Assembly (NCBI GenBank): GCA_954871525.1
Contig: OX940868.1
Span: 19,897,056 to 19,961,055, forward strand
Source: Parietaria judaica
Taxonomy: Eukaryota > Streptophyta > Magnoliopsida > Rosales > Urticaceae
Reading direction: 5' to 3'
Length of the DNA stretch: 64,000 bases
In this document: positions 28,134 through 63,037 of the stretch, one piece after another
How positions within the stretch are numbered: the first letter of the stretch is position 1
Layout: the number at the start of each line of letters is the position of its first letter
The notes under the pieces: model-generated
The model's database searches: none
What the model saw: only the letters and a program-made list of their open reading frames with translations
What the model was told of the DNA's origin: nothing
Program-made: the position numbers and the translations under genes

Positions 28134-29372
28134 CAGCGCCGGCCCTCCCTATAGGCAAGGGAGGCGGCAGCCTAGGGCCCCCGAATTTTGGGGGCCCAAA
28201 AAAAAAAATCTTTACATATATATAGGCTCTTGATTTTTTTTTTAGTTATATACGGTAACTTCCTAAAAAATAATTACGAAAAAATTTATAAAAAAAAAAT
28301 TAAATTTAAAAATCACATCTAATTAGAATACGCAAAAAAATAGCATTAAAGGAAATTAAAAAAATGAAAATATACTTACCATATACAAAATCTCTAAACA
28401 CAAGAAAAAATCCCAAATAAAACTTCACCCTTAAATCGGTGCTCATATTCTAAATCTCGGACTTAATCGATCATAGAAACTCACGGCGGCGAACGGCAAT
28501 CGGCAATTATTTTTCGTTTTGCTTCGAAGAAGAAGAAGTAAGCTCACTGACTCCTCGGCCTTTTCTTCGATTCCTTTGCCTGTGATGTTCTAGTTTCTAA
28601 ATCTGATTTGGAGAAGGAGAGATTTTTTTTCATGGCTGTTTTTTTATTTACTCTCGAATGGTTCAGATTTTAGATGAAGAAAAAAGGTTTGCAACATATA
28701 ATGAATATGATGATAAGTAAGTATGCATTGATACATGTGTTGGACTTAGGCGTGTGTCAGTAGAGAAAAGCACTGCAACCCCATGCTATGTGTAGTGTCT
28801 TGTTAGTGCCAGCTATAAGGAAAATTATTATTAAAATAAGGAAAAAATATTGTCATTGATTGTTGAAATCTTGAAGACAATAAGAATTCGCTTTTTGTCA
28901 TTTATGTTATGTTTGTTTGTATTGTTGTGTGTTTTAATTTTGTGAAGCAGTAAGTACTTTAAACCATGGTTCAAATTACCGATGTTACCGATAAACCGAT
29001 TACCGTTTTCGACGGATTAATCGATAACTTACCGATTAACCGACGGAAAACCTATAACACAGTAGCCTACCGATTATCGATACTTTTTGATGATTATCGA
29101 CGGATTATCGATACTTTTCGATACTTTTTGACAGAAAACTTATAAAATATTTTGATAATATCATACCACAAAACATATGTTAAATTATTAAGTGTATAAT
29201 TATAATATTAATATTAGTTGAAGTGTATAATATTAAATGAATATACATATTAAGTGTATATGTATGTTAAGTGTATAATATTATTTGAAGTGTGTAATAT
29301 TAAGTTAAATTATTAAGTGAAGTGTATGTGTATGTTAAGTGTGAATGTGTGATATTAGTTGAATAAAAAAAA

Positions 29373-29415
29373 GTCCCACATTGATAGATGACAAGAGTTT
29401 GGTGATGTTTATATA
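29373..29415 (+). promoter_or_regulatory. U6-snRNA-type (USE + TATA) promoter-like module, copy A
   Basis: GTCCCACATTG at 29373-29383 matches 10 of 11 positions of the plant upstream sequence element (consensus RTCCCACATCG). It is followed by exactly 24 bp and then TTTATATA at 29408-29415. That spacing is the one used by pol III-transcribed plant U6 genes; pol II snRNA genes use about 33-34 bp. By analogy transcription would start near the G at 29439. The motifs and spacing are seen directly. Promoter activity is inferred. Confidence 0.55.
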
Positions 29416-29438
29416 CCAAATATTAGGGACAAGGGCTT

Positions 29439-29585
29439 GGGCCTTTTGGGTCATAGGATTTTGTGGATGGGGGAGGACTCACACAAATGTTACACCACCA
29501 CACGCGCGCGCCGCCGCCGCTTGCGTGGCGGGGTGGGGTGGGGTGCTCTTGTGTAAATATAATTATGTTTGCCAAATTTTTTTTT
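29439..29585 (+). ncRNA. Putative pol III transcript from the MITE, copy A
   Basis: Predicted only from promoter geometry: start at about 29439 and end in the T9 run at 29577-29585, about 143-147 nt. The region contains a GC-rich inverted repeat: ACACAA ... CACCACACGC pairs with GCGTGGCGGGG ... TTGTGT, with a loop of CGCC repeats. Copy B conserves the stem-forming parts although its loop differs. Two T4 runs (about 29443 and 29456) could cause some early termination. No similarity to U6 or another known RNA is seen. Confidence 0.3.
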
Positions 29586-29827
29586 ACCGAAAAGTCCCTT
29601 TTTTTTACACTAATTTTGCCGAAAATAGGTTGGAAAAGGTTTTATCGAAAAGCTCGAAAATCGTCGAAAAGTATATAAAAACGATAAGTATTACAGCCGG
29701 CAACTTACCGGTAACTACCGAAAAGACCGATTATCGCCGATTATCGACGATTATCGTCGAAAATTCGAACCATGCTTTAAACTAGTATCTTACTATTTAT
29801 TTTAATTATAATATTTTTAGGTTAAAC

Positions 29828-30856
29828 ATGAGTTCAAGTAGAATCTACAAATCGGGAGCGGCAAAAAGAAAAGAAAAATAAAAAAAAGAGGCTTCGGACA
29901 AATCTCAATCAGGTTCTCTTGATAAGTATTTTCTTAAAAATGTGTTTATCGATAGAATAGAAGATCCGATTACAATTCAGAATGAAGTAGTTGGTCAAAA
30001 TGAAGAGAATGATAATGTGGATGTCGACGACAATGATGGCAATGATAATGTCAATGAGGAGAACGGTGATAAAAGAAGTGATATTGGCATTGATAAAGAT
30101 GATCCGGTAAATTAGAATTCAATTAGTCAAAGTCTTAGAGATTTTATTGTTGAGCGAGGCCCAAGAAGAGACTTGAATGTAACGTTTGAAAAAGATGAAT
30201 CTGGTAGAAGTTTTTCTTCGATTCATTATGAACGAGTTCTGCCAAATAATGAGAAGCAAGACAGAAAATGGTTGGTATATTAATCTTCGGCTCATAAAGT
30301 ATTTTGCTTTTGTTGTAAGTTATTTGCAACAAATCATCATCTTGTGGGCCAATTTTCTCATGAAGGTGTAAATGATTGGAAAAATATTTCAGCTCGACTT
30401 CAAAGCCATGAAAAAAAATCCGAAACACATTGAAGCTATTTTTGACATTAAGGCAATAAGATATCAAGCTCCACAAATAAGAGACGCTTTACTCGGTTTG
30501 GCAAGAAGTAATGAAGATGCGAAAATTAAAAGTGAAGCTGAGACTCTAGCAGTATACAATATTCAGAATTTTGAGTTCTTATTGGCACTGGTTATTTGGC
30601 ATGATTTGCTATTTGTTGTTAACAATGTTAGCAAAATTCTCCAGACTAAAGATATGCAAATTGATGTCGCCATCAAAGAAGTTTCTCAAAGTTGAAATTG
30701 ATCAAGTCATATCTTCGGTCGACTATGTCCCAAGAAAGGTTGAGCGGCTTAGCTATGTTATCTATTGAGAAAGATATGGTTGAGAAACTTGATTATACAA
30801 GTCTTATTAGTTCTTTTGCATCTAAAAATGCTAGACGCGGCGTTATATTTCAATAA
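29828..30856 (+). pseudogene. Degenerate hAT transposase (TTF-type zinc finger class)
   Basis: An ATG at 29828 opens a frame resembling plant zinc-finger hAT transposases. It has a basic then acidic N-terminus, the SLDKYF motif, a TTF-type zinc-finger segment around KVFCFCCKLF (about 30298-30327), part of the catalytic-core region around NFEFLLALVIWHDLLFVVNN (about 30566-30628), and a remnant of the C-terminal dimerisation domain (RLSGLAMLSIEKDMVEKLDY, about 30737-30796), ending at TAA 30854-30856. In-frame stops lie at 29879, 30113 and 30281, and further frame changes follow 30430. Most of the catalytic region between core and dimerisation domain is deleted. It cannot encode an active enzyme. 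Confidence 0.85.
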
Positions 30857-43550: not shown

Positions 43551-46500
43551 CAACTAGCCATCGCCGCCCCGCCTCCCCCGACGACGAAGCGAAGGAAGCG
43601 GCGCAAGAAGAGGGGGAAAGGAGGAGATCCCGGCATTCCGGGGATCCTTAGCGCCGAGGACGTGGAGGACCAGGCGACGGAAGAGCGGAGCGGTGGGCCA
43701 CAGGTCGAGGAGGTCGAGCAGGTCTGCATCGACGAGACTGATCCGACGCGAACCGTCGGAGTAGGTGCGGGACTTGATCCAGAGGTGAAGGCCCATCTGG
43801 TGGAGTTTTTGAAGAGGAACAAGGAAAGCTTCGCTTGGACCAGCGACGACATGCCAGGGATCGATCCTCCGGTGATCACTCACCGGCTCAACACCGACCC
43901 TAATCATCGACCGGTCATACAGAAGAGGAGGAAAATGGCGGCCGACAGGAACAAGATCATCAACGACGAGGTGGACAGGTTGCTGGCGATGGGAACTATC
44001 CGGGAGGTCAAGTACCCCGAGTGGCTGGCCAACACCGTCGTCATACAGAAGAAGAACGGCAAGTGGAGGGTTTGCGTGGACTACGTTGATCTCAATAAAG
44101 CGTGTCCGAAGGATAGCTTCCCGATGCCCCACATCAACCGCCTAGTCGAGGCGACCATCGGGTACGAGCTCATGAGCTTCATGGACGCCTATTCTGGGTA
44201 TCACCAAATCAGGATGCACCCCGATGACGAGGAGAAAACCGCCTTCATCAGCGAGCGAGGGACGTACTGCTACAAGGTCATGCCGTTCGGGCTGAAGAAC
44301 GCCGGCGCCACTTATCAGCGGCTCATGACGAAGATGTTCCACGATCAGATAGGGGAATCGCTGGAGGTGTACATCGACGACCTGGTCGTCAAGTCTCTGA
44401 AGGTGGCCATGCACATCGAGCATCTGGAGAAATGTTTCAGGGTCCTCAACGAGCATAAGATGAAGCTGAACCCGACGAAGTGTACCTTCGGCATCTCCTC
44501 CGGGAAGTTCTTGGGCTTCATGGTGACCCGTCGCGGAATCGAGGCTAGCCCCGACCAGGTCGAAGCCTTCCAGAGCATGCCCTCGCCGCGTAATCGAAGA
44601 GAGGTCCAGAAGCTTACGGGACGGATCAACGCGCTCGGGCGATTTATATCGCGGCAGACGAACAGAACCCTTCTCTTCTATGAGCTGCTGAAGAAGAATA
44701 AGAAGTTCGAGTGGACGCAGGAGTGCGAGGAGGCGTTCCAAGCATTGAAGGCTTACCTCTCGTCGCCACCAGTCATGACGAAGCCGGAGCCAGGAGAACC
44801 TCTGTTCCTATACCTCGCGGTGTCCGATCACGCGATAAGCCAGGTGTTAGTGCGAGAGGAGAAGGGGGAGCAGAGGCCCGTTTCGTACATTAGCCGGAAG
44901 CTCCTTGACGCCGAGACGCGGTACCCCCAGTTTGAAAAGCTGGCTCTCGCGTTATTCGACGCATCGGAAAAGTTGAGATTCCATTTCCAGATGCACACCA
45001 TCGTCGTCATGACGGACAGGCCCGTCAGGTCCATTCTTCACAGCCCGAACCAGTCAGGGAGGATCACGAAGTGGTCGATCAAGTTGGGAGCGTACGACAT
45101 CGAGTATCGACTCCGAACCAGCTTGAAATCACAGGTCCTTGCTGATTTCCTCATCGAGTTGCCAAAGGAACTCGTGGATTCGCGCGACGAGACAGGGATG
45201 TGGAGGCTCCTCGTCGATGGGTCGTCAACATCGCTCGGATCGGGCATCGGGATCAGGCTCGTCTCCCCGATCGGAGAGGTCGTGGAAAAAGCTTGTCGCC
45301 TCGCTTTCCGGGCCACGAATAACGAGGCCGAGTACGAGGCTCTCATCGTCGGGATGCAATCGGCTCTGGCTTTGGGCGTGAAGAAGGTAAACGCTTTCTC
45401 GGACTCTCAGTTAGTGGTCAAGCAGGTTAACGGGGAGTACGAGAAGAACGACGAAAGGATGGAGGCGTACGCCGGGGTTGTCGAATCCCTGTCGAAGAAA
45501 TTCGACTTTTGGACTTTATCGCAGGTCTCGAGGGGCGATAAAAACCACGCCGATGCGTTGGCAGGATTGGGCTCCACAACCGAAATCGACGAGCTCCGGT
45601 CGATCACCGTCGAGATGGTCGAGAGGCCCAGTATCAAGCGAGAAGAAGGTCCGCCAAAGAAGAAGCGTAGGGCCAACGACAACACCTCCGGGAAGCTGGA
45701 CGATGAGGTTGACGCTCAAGAGATCCTCGACATCGAGTGCGAGAACCTGAGTCCCGACGAGCAGGGAATCGTAGACGATGACGAAGAAGAGGATTGGCGC
45801 ACCCCTCTTCGAAGGTACATCCTCGACGGAACGTTACCCGATGACAGGCAGGAGGCCAGGAAGTTGCGAACCAAGAGCGCAAAGTATTCTGTTCTGAATG
45901 GCAGGCTATACAGGGCGAGCTTCGAGGGAATACTACTGCGATGCTTAGGCAAGAAGGAGGCAGAGTACGTTATGGGAGAAATCCACGGCGGGGAGTGCGG
46001 CAATCACTCCGGCGGCCGATCCCTCCTTCGAAAGGCCAAGCGGCAAGGCTTCTTTTGGGAAACCATGGTCGCGGATTGCGCCGACCACACCAAGAAGTGC
46101 AAGAAGTGCCAGCGCCATGCTCCAGCGATAAATTGCCCGGCCGAGAAGCTGTCGGTGGTGTCCGTCCCGTACCCCTTCATGAAGTGGTCGATGGATATCG
46201 TCGGTCCTATGCCTACCGGCTCCCGACAGCGGAGGTTTATGCTGGTAGTAACGGACTTCTTCACTAAGTGGTCCGAAGCAGAGGCGTACGCCAACATCAA
46301 GGATTCGGACGTCGAAAGCTATGTCTGGAAGAACGTGATTACACGTTTTGGACTGCCCCGTGAGATCATCGCCGATAACGGGTCCCAGTTCATCTCGAAG
46401 AGATTCCAGGACTTCTGCGCTCGATGGAGAATAAGGCTGAATACGTCAACGCCGAGATACCCGCAGGGAAACGGAAATGCGGAAGCGCTCAATCGCACCA

Positions 46501-47037
46501 TCGTCGACAGCCTCAAGAAAAGGCTCGACGAGAAGAAGGGCTTGTGGGCCGATGAGCTCCCCGGAGTTCTTTGGGCCTACCGCACGACCCCCCCACTCGG
46601 CCACCGGCGAGACCCCTTTCGCACTCGCCTTCGGGGTCGAAGCGGTGATACCGGCTGAGGTGGGAATACCCAGTCTGCGACGAACGTGGGCTCCAGGCCA
46701 TTCGGACGACAACAGCCAAGGACTCCTCCATCAACTGGACCACATCGACGAAAGGCGAGAGCGAGCTAAAGCGCACATCGCCAACTACCAAAACACCATC
46801 GCTCGATTCTACAACAAAAGCGTGCGCCCTCGACAGTTCAGGGTCGGCGAGCTGGTGCTCCGCAAGGTTTTCCAGAACACGGCGGAGCTGAACGCGGGAA
46901 AGCTTGGGCAGAACTGGGAAGGCCCATACAGGGTCGTGGAGGTAGTCAAACCAGGAGTCTACAGGCTGGAGAACTTGGCCGGCCTCGAGGTGGTTCGGAG
47001 CTGGAATGTCAAGCACCTCAAGAAGTTCTATCAGTAG
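43551..47037 (+). pseudogene. pol: Gypsy pol: RT, RNase H, archaeal-type RNase H, integrase
   Basis: The frame is open from 43551, just after a TAG at 43548, to 46658; residues here are numbered from 43662. Reverse transcriptase: catalytic SFMDAY (D175) and YIDD (237-240). Then the Ty3-type RNase H (about 380-500). A second, archaeal-type RNase H has LLVDGSS (D519), NNEAEYEA (E557), FSDSQ (D581) and HADALA (D631). Integrase has the zinc-binding HHCC (H775, H782, C813, C816) and the DDE triad D845, D905, E941. In the run of seven C at 46588-46594 the frame shifts, and the C-terminal integrase domain (the GPYRVVEVVKPGVYRLE region) continues in another frame to the TAG ending at 47037. All catalytic residues are present, so decay is limited to this one indel and the missing 5' part. 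It copies and inserts retrotransposon DNA in the nucleus when intact. Confidence 0.9.
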
Positions 47038-47485: not shown

Positions 47486-48195
47486 AGAAAAAAGGGCCTC
47501 GACTACAGTCTCGATGGCACCATGCCTCGACAACAGTCTCGATGGCACCATGAAAAAGAAAAAAGGGCCTCGACTACAGTCTCGATGGCACCATGAAAAA
47601 GAAAAAAGGGCCTCGACTACAGTCTAGATGGCACCATGAAAAAGAAAAAAGGGCCTCGACAACAGTCTCGATGGCACCATGAAAAAGAAAAAAGGGCCTC
47701 GACAACATTCTCGATGGCACCATTAAAAAAAAAAAAGGGCCTCGACAACAGTCTCGAGGGCACCACGGAAAAGAAAAAAGGGCCTCGACTACAGTCTCGA
47801 TGGCACCATGAAAAAGAAAAAAGGGCCTCGACAACAGTCTCGATGGCACCATGAAAAAGAAAAAAGGGCCTCGACAACAGTCTCGATGGCACCATGAAAA
47901 AAAAAAAGGGCCTCGACAACAGTCTCGATGGCACCATGAAAAAAAAAAAGGGCCTCGATGGCACCATGAAAAATAAAAGGCCTCGACAACAGTCTCGATG
48001 GCACCATGAAAAAAAAAAAAGGGCCTCGACAACAGTCTCGATGGCACCATGAAAAAAAAAAAAGGGCCTCGATGGCACCATGAAAAAGAAAAGGCCTCGA
48101 CAACAGTCTCGATGGCACCATGAAAAAGAGAAAAGGGCCTCGACAACAGTCTCGAGGGCACCACGGAAAAGAAAAAAGGGCCTCGACATAAGTCT
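47486..48195. repeat. Minisatellite inside the Gypsy element, about 43-bp unit, about 18 copies
   Basis: The unit reads GGGCCTCGACAACAGTCTCG, then ATGGCACCATG and an A-rich spacer (AAAAAGAAAAAA) of variable length. About 18 units lie head to tail. Two are shortened by loss of the CAACAGTCTCGA part (about 47952 and 48065), and variants such as ACTACAG and GAGGGCACCACGG recur at separated positions. The long open frames on the minus strand here are periodic translations of the repeat and not proteins. Tandem repeats at this location are known for Tat-lineage elements. Confidence 0.92.
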
Positions 48196-48285
48196 TGAGC
48201 GCACCACAAAGAGCTAGCGATAAGGAGCGGTATCGCGACAAACTTCCCCCTCCCCGGTCATCATTTATTATGTTCGTTTCGTTTT

Positions 48286-55323: not shown

Positions 55324-55507
55324 CAAGGTTGGAATTTTCGACGATAATCGTCGATAATCGTCGATTTTTCGGCTTTTTGATAGTTACCGGTAAGTTGCCG
55401 GTTGTAATGCTTATCGATTTTATATACTTTTCGACGATTTTCGATAAACCGATTACCAACCGATTTTTGGTAAAATCAGTGTAAAAAAAAGGTACTTTTC
55501 GGTAAAA

Positions 55508-55662
55508 AAAATTTCGGCAAAAATAATTATATTTGCACAACCCCACCCCACCCCACCCCGCCACGTCCGGACGGACGGACGGCGGCGGCGGCGGCGCGCG
55601 TGGTGGTGTAACATTTGTGTGAGTCCTCCCCCATCCACAAAATCCTATGACCCAAAGGGCCC
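55508..55662 (-). ncRNA. Putative pol III transcript from the MITE, copy B
   Basis: By the same geometry as copy A, start near 55662 and end in a T8 run (A8 on the plus strand, 55504-55511), about 155 nt. The stem-forming sides (ACACCACCACG and CGTGGCGGGGTGG) are kept while the loop is a different CCG/GTCC-repeat sequence. It contains four G4 runs separated by single T, a strong G-quadruplex candidate. Prediction only. Confidence 0.3.
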
Positions 55663-55685
55663 AAGCCCTTGTCCCTAATATTTGG

Positions 55686-55728
55686 TATATAAACATCACC
55701 AAACTCTTGTCATCTATCAATGTGGGAC
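55686..55728 (-). promoter_or_regulatory. U6-snRNA-type (USE + TATA) promoter-like module, copy B
   Basis: On the minus strand GTCCCACATTG (55728-55718) is followed by exactly 24 bp and TTTATATA (55693-55686). Motifs and spacing are identical to copy A at 29373-29415. From the USE through about 120 bp downstream I see only one base difference between the copies until the GC-rich hairpin. Confidence 0.55.
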
Positions 55729-56150
55729 TTTTTGTTATTCAACTTATATTACACAACTTAACATACACATACACTTTCACTTAATATTACACACTTCAAC
55801 TAATATTATACACTTAACATACATATTAACTTCACCTAACATACATATACACTTAATATGTATATTCATTTAATATTATACACTTCAACTAATATTAATA
55901 TTATAATTATACACTTAATAATTTAACATATGTTTTGTGGTATGATATTATCAAAATATTTTATAAGTTTTCTGTCAAAAAGTATTCGAAAAGTATCGAT
56001 AATCCGTCGATAATCATCGAAAAGTATCGATAATCGGTAAGCTACAGTGTTATAGGTTTTCCGTCGGTTAATCGGTAAGCTATCGATTAATCCGTCGAAA
56101 ACGGTAATCGGTTTATCGGTAAAATCGGTAAGTTGAACCATGGTTTTGAA

Positions 56151-61708: not shown

Positions 61709-63037
61709 ATGAAGGAGACTCAGGAAAATTCCGGCGAAGCTCCGGCGAACTCGGAGACGGAGCTCTTCGGGAAGTACACGCTCGGGAAGCTGCTCGGGCG
61801 CGGCGCGTTCGCGAAGGTGTACCACGCGCGGACGGTGGGCACCGGCGAGAGCGTGGCGATCAAGGCGGTGAGCAAGCAGAAGGTGGCGAAGAGCGGCTGC
61901 GTGGCGCACGTTAAGCGGGAGATCGCTATCATGCGCCGGCTGCGCCACCCTCACGTGGTGAAGCTCCACGAGGTGCTGGCGACGAAGACGAAGGTCTACT
62001 TCGTCATGGAGTTCGCCAAGGGAGGCGAGCTCTTCACGAAGATCGCCAAGGGCCGGTTCGGGGAGGATCTCGGCCGTCGGTACTTCCGGCAGCTGATCGC
62101 CGCCGTCCGATACTGCCACTCGCGGGGCGTCTTCCACCGTGACCTCAAGCCGGAGAATCTGCTCCTCGACGAGAATTGGGACCTCAAGGTGTCGGACTTC
62201 GGGCTCAGCGCTGTCTCCGACCCAGCCCGGCCTGAGAACCCGATGCTCCACACGCTGTGTGGGACCCCCGCCTATGTGGCGCCGGAGATTCTCGCGAAGA
62301 AGGGCTATGACGGGGCGAAGGTCGACGTCTGGACTTGCGGTGTCGTTCTGTTCGTCCTAACGGCGGGGTATCTGCCGTTCAACGACGCCAATCTCATGGC
62401 GATGTACCGGAAAATCTACCGAGGCGAGTTCCGCTTCCCGAAGTGGACTTCGCCGGAGCTTCGGCGACTTATTTCCCGGATGCTCGACGTTAATCCTGAG
62501 ACGAGAATTTCGTTGGACCAGATCCTCCGGGATCCCTGGTTCAAGAAGGATCTCAAGCTCGAAATCTCTCCGGTGGAGAAAATGCGAGACCGGCAACCGT
62601 CGGTCCGGCTGCAGGGAAAGATCAAGAAGAGTTTGAATGCCTTCGATATAATCTCGTTCTCGTCCGGTTTCAGCCTCTCCGGTCTGTTCGACGAGCCCGA
62701 TATGTCCGCGTTGGAGGAGCGGTTCCTGTCGGCGGAGACGCCTGAGAGAGTGGTCGAGCGGGTGGGCCAAGTGGCAAAGGGGGAGGGGTTGAAGGCCACG
62801 TGGCAGGCAGAGGGGTGGTGGGCCCGGGTCGAGGAGGGGGAGGGGCAGAACGGGGATTTTTCGGCTGCGGTGGAGGTTCACCGGCTTACGGCGGAGCTTG
62901 TGGTAGTCGAGGTTAAGGTCAGAGAAAGCACTGCCGCGAAAATTTGGAAAAGCAAGTTGTGGCCGCAACTTGAGGGGTTGGTGTTCCAACCGGAAGGGGC
63001 CGGTCCGGTACCCGGTGGTGATAGTATTGAGAATTGA
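61709..63037 (+). CDS. CIPK14: CBL-interacting protein kinase (SnRK3), CIPK14/CIPK11 type
   Basis: Intronless, 442 aa, the usual length for the intronless CIPK clade. Kinase domain about 23-278: glycine loop GRGAFAKV (30-37), ATP-binding lysine in VAIK (K52), HRDLKPEN (catalytic D145), DFG (163-165), activation loop ending APE (191-193). The regulatory region has the NAF motif [20 protein letters not shown] (308-327), which binds CBL calcium sensors and relieves autoinhibition, then a phosphatase-interaction-like region (about 335-365) and a basic/acidic tail. CIPKs phosphorylate ion transporters at the plasma membrane or tonoplast in response to calcium. Residues around [13 protein letters not shown] and ERVVERV point to the CIPK14/11 subgroup. 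The ATG at 61709 was chosen because the frame upstream reaches only a GTG in the leader. No active-site residue is missing. Confidence 0.93.

What the first reader, a model, noticed from the sequence alone, without database searches (positions are those of the whole stretch)
29373..29585. Mobile U6-like pol III promoter inside a hAT-type MITE (copy A)
Seen directly: GTCCCACATTG, then 24 bp, then TTTATATA, then a T9 run 161 bp beyond the TATA box. Known: plant U6 genes use RTCCCACATCG followed by TATA at this spacing, while pol II snRNA genes use a longer one. Inference: the MITE carries a working or recently working pol III promoter and may express a structured RNA of about 145 nt. A transposon with a snRNA-type external promoter would be able to seed new small-RNA genes. 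I do not know this family as described, but could not search for it.
Basis: partly seen in the sequence, partly recalled or inferred. Interest (0 to 1): 0.78.

Follow-up and report, generated by a model that had tools for sequence, protein, structure and literature searches.

The report
U6-type promoter carried by hAT MITEs
A small cut-and-paste transposon with many hundreds of copies in this plant genome carries, inside it, a promoter with exactly the layout of the plant's own U6 and 7SL small-RNA genes, so each jump may plant a ready-made small-RNA start site; whether it is actually transcribed is not yet shown.

Summary
In detail: GTCCCACATTG (29373-29383), 24 bp, TTTATATA (29408-29415), T9 (29577-29585), inside an 810-bp hAT-type MITE (28965-29774) with 8-bp duplications. 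In the window's own genome (538.7 Mb) USE-N(22-26)-TTTATATA matches 1,360 times (reversed control 0); 98 of the 100 listed places carry this element's module, all at 24 bp. In the same genome nine U6 loci with a USE and five 7SL genes start exactly 66 nt after the USE start; in copy A that is G29439. The same core sits in families I and II, whose arms differ, and in a more diverged subfamily III. II and III consensuses differ at 1 of 51 predicted-transcript sites but 11 of 47 non-motif promoter sites. Against: in 27 copies sampled without regard to the promoter, USE+TATA change as often as neighbours (7/513 vs 25/1863); T>=6 is missing in 16 of 22 family II copies, though T5 is present in 21; TTTT lies at +21; no Rfam match, weak fold signal. 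So: a genuine, amplified U6-geometry promoter riding on hAT MITEs; transcription is plausible, not shown. My paper searches (titles, abstract starts) listed no such family.

The parts
28957..28964 (.). left target-site duplication CTTTAAAC of copy A
   Evidence: equals 29775-29782
28965..29774 (+). hAT-type MITE, copy A (family I), 810 bp, TIR CATGGTTCRAATT
   Evidence: 8-bp TSD and TIRs; 40 matches to 29300-29650 scored, of 2,074 candidates: this place and 39 others at 87-94% identity
29208..29576 (+). core shared with family II, whose arms give no blastn match to copy A
29373..29383 (+). USE GTCCCACATTG (identical to the USE of U6 loci L083 and L100)
29384..29407 (+). 24-bp spacer, the U6/7SL distance of this genome
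29408..29415 (+). TATA box TTTATATA
29439..29439 (+). predicted +1 (G), 66 nt after USE start as in U6 and 7SL genes
   Evidence: initiation itself not shown
29439..29489 (+). first 51 nt of predicted transcript; 1 of 51 differences between family II and III consensuses
29459..29462 (+). TTTT at +21, possible weak premature terminator; at +21 in 38 of 40 family I and 21 of 22 family II copies
29493..29547 (+). GC-rich imperfect hairpin, variable in length and sequence
29577..29585 (+). T9 run, possible Pol III terminator; T>=6 in 40 of 40 family I but only 6 of 22 family II copies
29775..29782 (.). right target-site duplication CTTTAAAC of copy A
55324..56142 (-). second copy (B) of the same MITE, 819 bp, TSD TTCAAAAC, 89% identical to A
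55718..55728 (-). USE of copy B; TTTATATA 24 bp further, from 55693 down

Best explanation
A set of related non-autonomous hAT elements carries an internal type-3 (U6/7SL-like) RNA polymerase III transcription unit. Shown here: the promoter motifs, their U6-identical spacing, its presence in very many copies, and its persistence across families whose arms differ. Inferred: a hAT transposase in trans moves the element by its ends, so every insertion brings a promoter able to bind SNAPc/TBP; in a fraction of insertions Pol III starts at the G corresponding to 29439 and reads the core to the T-rich stretch some 100-155 nt on (T>=6 in family I, usually T5 in family II). The unit was probably acquired once in an ancestral element and passed between MITE families with the core. 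Individual copies then drift neutrally.
For: Exact motif and 24-bp spacing in A and B; 1,360 exact genome matches vs 0 control; in the nine U6 loci that have a USE, of 24 U6 hits, the TATA-like box follows after 24 nt and U6 starts at USE start +66; 5 of 9 fetched hits of the same pattern outside the family are 7SL genes starting at +66 (their spacing was limited to 22-26 by the search, their start was not); position +66 is G in 40 of 40 family I and 21 of 22 family II copies; consensuses of I and II are identical from before the USE into the GC hairpin although the arms of II loci give no blastn match to copy A; II vs III consensus: transcript 1/51 changed, spacer plus TATA-to-+1 11/47, p = 0.0014; T>=5 in 40 of 40 family I (first at +115 to +154) and 21 of 22 family II, 19 of them first at +101 to +143.
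Against: No transcript data. In 27 promoter-unselected copies, USE+TATA change as often as neighbours (7/513 vs 25/1863) and USE more often than the spacer (5/297 vs 4/621) (one promoter-deleted copy, L141, dropped). Of 12 anchor-exact copies without the exact promoter, 10 have base changes in the USE and 2 are out of register. T>=6 is absent within 260 nt in 16 of 22 family II copies. TTTT at +21 in 38 of 40 and 21 of 22. No Rfam match. Weak fold signal. The II/III comparison is post hoc, rests on two consensuses, and the family III sample was chosen for exact USE and TATA.
Confidence: 0.55

Rival explanations
1. Inert passenger: the core is a fossil or captured U6/7SL-type promoter that was copied only because the hAT ends are mobile; the copies are silenced or too weak, and nothing depends on transcription.
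For: USE and TATA no better preserved than neighbours in individual copies; T>=6 not kept in family II; internal TTTT; the cores of I and II are so alike that recency alone could explain their identity.
Against: Between II and III the transcript is kept while the spacer diverges; the unit occurs with different arms; about three quarters of unselected copies are still exact (21 of 28; 46 of 58).
Confidence: 0.32
2. The USE/TATA block is a Pol II promoter, for instance the 5' region of the ancestral hAT transposase gene or of a captured retrotransposon LTR, not a Pol III promoter.
For: Plant Pol II snRNA genes use the same two motifs (PMC5079582, passages); LTRs with a CCCACATCG word are recalled from memory only.
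Against: Spacing is that of this genome's U6 and 7SL genes; all 98 listed family matches have 24 bp. The Pol II spacing control in this genome (U2) did not complete.
Confidence: 0.1
3. Chance co-occurrence of a motif, a TATA and a T-run in AT-rich DNA.
For: With mismatches allowed, USE-TATA pairs are as common in the window as in shuffles (4 vs 4.5 expected).
Against: The exact pair came up once in 60 simulated windows; 1,360 matches vs 0 in the reversed control; the layout matches U6 and 7SL to the base.
Confidence: 0.01

Closest known systems
Plant type-3 Pol III genes (U6, 7SL/SRP RNA; telomerase RNA/AtR8 from papers)
   Same: USE, 24-bp spacing, TATA, +1 at USE start +66 (U6 and 7SL tested in this genome)
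   Different: Located inside a mobile DNA element in very many copies; predicted RNA without Rfam match; terminator strength differs between families
hAT MITEs
   Same: TIRs, 8-bp TSDs, short, high copy number
   Different: Carries a snRNA-type promoter; no such family appeared in my paper searches (listed in Tried and rejected)
SINEs (type-2 A/B box) and Cassandra TRIM elements (5S, type 1) (recalled)
   Same: Transposons that carry a Pol III promoter
   Different: Retrotransposons with internal promoters; here an upstream type-3 promoter in a DNA transposon, whose movement does not need the RNA

Membership tests
hAT MITE | 8-bp target-site duplication | tested here: met
   A CTTTAAAC, B TTCAAAAC; exact 8-bp TSD next to CAAGG-like TIRs in 19 of 30 pattern loci by an automatic scan, the other 11 without a convincing pair; none found for L078
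hAT MITE | short terminal inverted repeats, length under about 1.1 kb | tested here: met
   TIR CATGGTTC.. (I) / CAAGGTTTAAAAT.. (II); 810 and 819 bp (A, B), about 1,050 bp (II)
hAT MITE | mobilised by a hAT transposase with matching termini | not tested
   no autonomous partner was looked for; the ORF 30372-30695 beside copy A had no Pfam match
hAT MITE | subfamily III copies are MITEs too | tested here: inconclusive
   only short stretches around the promoter were fetched; L078 is 84% identical to the family II core but no TSD was found
plant type-3 Pol III promoter | USE matching RTCCCACAT(C/T)G | tested here: met
   same TTG form in U6 loci L083, L100
plant type-3 Pol III promoter | Pol III spacing between USE and TATA | tested here: met
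   24 bp, as in 9 U6 and 5 7SL loci
plant type-3 Pol III promoter | purine +1 at the fixed distance | tested here: met
   G in 40 of 40 family I; G in 21 and A in 1 of 22 family II
plant type-3 Pol III gene | T-run terminator | tested here: inconclusive
   T>=6 in 40 of 40 family I but 6 of 22 family II; T>=5 in 40 of 40 and 21 of 22
plant type-3 Pol III gene | transcription by Pol III | not testable with these tools
   no RNA data held
known small RNA family | Rfam match in transcript | tested here: not met

The most novel reading that the evidence does not exclude
A DNA transposon lineage took up a type-3 Pol III transcription unit and kept it: it makes a conserved small RNA from many genomic sites, the unit has been handed on between MITE families while their arms were replaced, and new insertions seed new small-RNA genes. 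The RNA may act for the element (for example titrating SNAPc or silencing factors) or for the host.
Probability: 0.25. Interest if true: 0.85.

Novelty: new variant of a known kind. Interest (0 to 1): 0.62.

Why it matters
Known transposons with Pol III promoters are mainly retroelements using tRNA-, 7SL- or 5S-type internal promoters (recalled). A cut-and-paste element that spreads the upstream U6-type promoter would be a direct route by which genomes gain new U6-type small-RNA genes, and would place over a thousand potential SNAPc binding sites in one genome. It also cautions those who mine plant genomes for U6 promoters by motif: here 98 of the first 100 listed exact hits are transposon copies.

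Tried and rejected
Chance motif: rejected for the exact sites. A known RNA inside the element: no Rfam match in the window at gathering score, and in L001, L055, L078 at E 0.1 only a subthreshold match far from the promoter. tRNA-type element: ARAGORN found nothing. Copy-level selection on USE/TATA: not supported; the test drops L141 (promoter deleted) and sites changed in 15% or more of copies. Protein-database route to other species: the frame through the core gave 1 hit of 7 candidates, P0121, an ENA protein that looks like a chimera of a further copy and a bacterial transporter (transporter label recalled). Exact core words: 0 in viral contigs and 0 in genome contigs. The family II set (22 loci) was picked by eye from the 30 pattern loci; dropped were L048, L052, L054, L057, L060, L065, L072, L077. 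Family I is A, B and the 39 best matches to A, so leans towards A; L021 did not fit the promoter pattern and is missing from the T-run counts. Of the 22 subfamily III matches, picked by eye from 35, 21 were aligned; the one left out (C21:18656894) has a 23-bp spacer.

Literature (PMC open-licence full text; titles and abstract starts of the listed papers only): searches listed no plant MITE with a snRNA-type promoter; others (185 papers, 20 listed; 13,669 papers, 8 listed) were too unspecific to tell. PMC12133305, PMC5079582, PMC11961915 and PMC6765143 were seen as passages. Waibel and Filipowicz 1990 was seen only as cited there.

Not answered by the server: U2 genes as Pol II spacing control and USE variation in family III without conditioning on USE.

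Full report
Observation. They lie in an 810-bp element, 28965-29774, bounded by the 8-bp duplication CTTTAAAC and with TIRs CATGGTTC. A second copy, 55324-56142 minus (819 bp), has its own duplication TTCAAAAC, 89% identity and the same promoter. This fits a hAT MITE. An exact USE with a TATA at that distance came up once in 60 Markov-simulated windows; with two mismatches allowed in the USE the window is no richer than chance (4 vs 4.5).

Host. A CIPK kinase encoded at 61709-63037 is closest to Morus (72%), Ficus (71%), Humulus (69%), so the plant is probably a Rosales member near Moraceae/Urticaceae (inference).

Copy number. The window's assembly (538.7 Mb, 87 contigs) was searchable. A 351-bp query gave 2,074 candidates, of which 40 were scored: the query place itself and 39 others at 87-94% identity. 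RTCCCACATYG-N(22 to 26)-TTTATATA matched 1,360 times with a reversed control of 0; only 100 places, on the first 22 Mb of one contig, are listed: 98 carry this element's spacer, 1 is a diverged relative (L078), 1 is unrelated (L065). Genome-wide 35 of the matches have a spacer that does not begin with A, as the main family's does. A transcript-side anchor (27-mer, up to 3 mismatches) matched 1,722 times, control 0.

Geometry against real Pol III genes of the same genome. Of 24 U6 hits, nine (L079-L086 and the partial hit L100) have a USE with at most one mismatch; in all nine a TATA-like box starts 24 nt after it (TTTATA in seven, TTTAAATA in two) and U6 starts at USE start +66; the other 15 lack a USE. 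Of the 35 matches, nine belong to neither the main family nor subfamily III; all nine were fetched: five are 7SL (Plant_SRP) genes whose model position 1 lies exactly at USE start +66, four have no Rfam match at E 0.01. That plants use USE-TATA spacing to choose Pol III, and that the telomerase RNA/AtR8 gene is a SNAPc-dependent Pol III gene with these motifs, is from passages of PMC11961915, PMC12133305 and PMC6765143.

The core crosses families. Many pattern loci match copy A only over 29208-29580. They belong to a family II, about 1,050 bp, TIR CAAGGTTTAAAATACCGCTTGCCG, again with 8-bp duplications. The extreme ends of I and II resemble each other (CATGGTTC / CAAGGTTT) and the start of the right arms may be distantly related, but beyond the core blastn finds no match. 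The consensuses of I (41 rows: A, B, 39 loci) and II (22 loci) are identical from before the USE into the GC hairpin. Of the 35 matches with another first spacer base, 22 (by eye) are a more diverged subfamily III, 20 at 24 bp and two at 23. Twenty of these plus L078 were aligned. II and III consensuses differ at 0/11 USE and 0/8 TATA sites (both fixed by the search), 6/24 spacer sites, 5/23 TATA-to-+1 sites, and 1/51 sites of the predicted transcript; transcript against non-motif promoter p = 0.0014. This is the pattern of a gene with an upstream promoter, but it is one comparison, made after seeing the data (L078 alone: 3/51 vs 15/47, p = 0.0013, not independent).

Results against function. 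Copies chosen by an exact transcript anchor without regard to the promoter: 46 of 58 and 21 of 28 have exact USE+TATA; of the 12 others in the first set, 10 have base changes in the USE. Setting aside one copy that lost the promoter by a deletion (L141), USE+TATA show 7 changes in 513 cells and the other sites 25 in 1863 (p = 1.0); USE alone 5/297, spacer 4/621, TATA 2/216 (sites changed in 15% or more of copies were treated as subfamily markers and dropped). Copies thus drift as expected for dead insertions; selection, if any, acts only on source elements. T>=6 occurs in 40 of 40 family I copies (first at +126 to +189) but in only 6 of 22 family II copies within 260 nt; T5 is commoner, 40 of 40 and 21 of 22. 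A TTTT sits at +21 in 38 of 40 and 21 of 22. The 147-nt RNA folds only modestly better than shuffles (z -1.91, 8 of 200 shuffles as good); the first 62 nt not at all. Within family III the transcript diverges more than the spacer (0.14 vs 0.07 per site; truncated copies included), again as for dead copies.

Conclusion. The promoter is real in structure and is spread on a large scale by hAT MITEs. That it fires is likely enough to test, not shown. Searches of the open-licence library (titles and abstract starts of listed papers) showed no plant MITE with such a promoter; most subscription journals are outside it.

Noticed in passing
L168, L170, L171 (C9:35.302 Mb; C21:1.7177 and 1.7189 Mb): Three copies, two of them 1.2 kb apart, of an unidentified USE-24-TATA locus whose predicted RNA shares a stretch like TTTTCACSGTCGGCAAGCGGGTATCACTYGATGATCT; no Rfam match at E 0.01. 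Possibly an undescribed Pol III small RNA.
   Followed up: partly
L163 (C1:27.964 Mb): Another exact USE-24-TATA locus with CGGAAGTGGCTGAGGGATAATGGG at the predicted start, no Rfam match at E 0.01.
   Followed up: partly
L065 (C1:5,937,460-5,940,502): Non-MITE USE-24-TATA whose downstream strand carries telomere-like GGGTTTAGGG; no Rfam match at gathering score.
   Followed up: partly
P0121: ENA protein on a 977-base contig joining a MITE-core frame (80% identical over 50 aa) to what looks like a bacterial transporter; probably a metagenome assembly chimera.
   Followed up: partly
window 29828-30700: Copy A sits just upstream of an interrupted reading frame that resembles a plant hAT-type transposase start (recalled); Pfam found nothing in the piece 30372-30695.
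   Followed up: partly
window 47574-48283, minus: Tandem repeat read in three frames as CRGPFFFFMVPSRLL-like units.
   Followed up: no
window 43551-47037: Long ORFs that read as a Ty3/gypsy polyprotein (recognised by eye).
   Followed up: no
L048, L072; L154, L158: Core-bearing loci whose left side departs from family II (upstream of about -147 in L048, L072; close to the USE in L154, L158): further arrangements around the same promoter.
   Followed up: no
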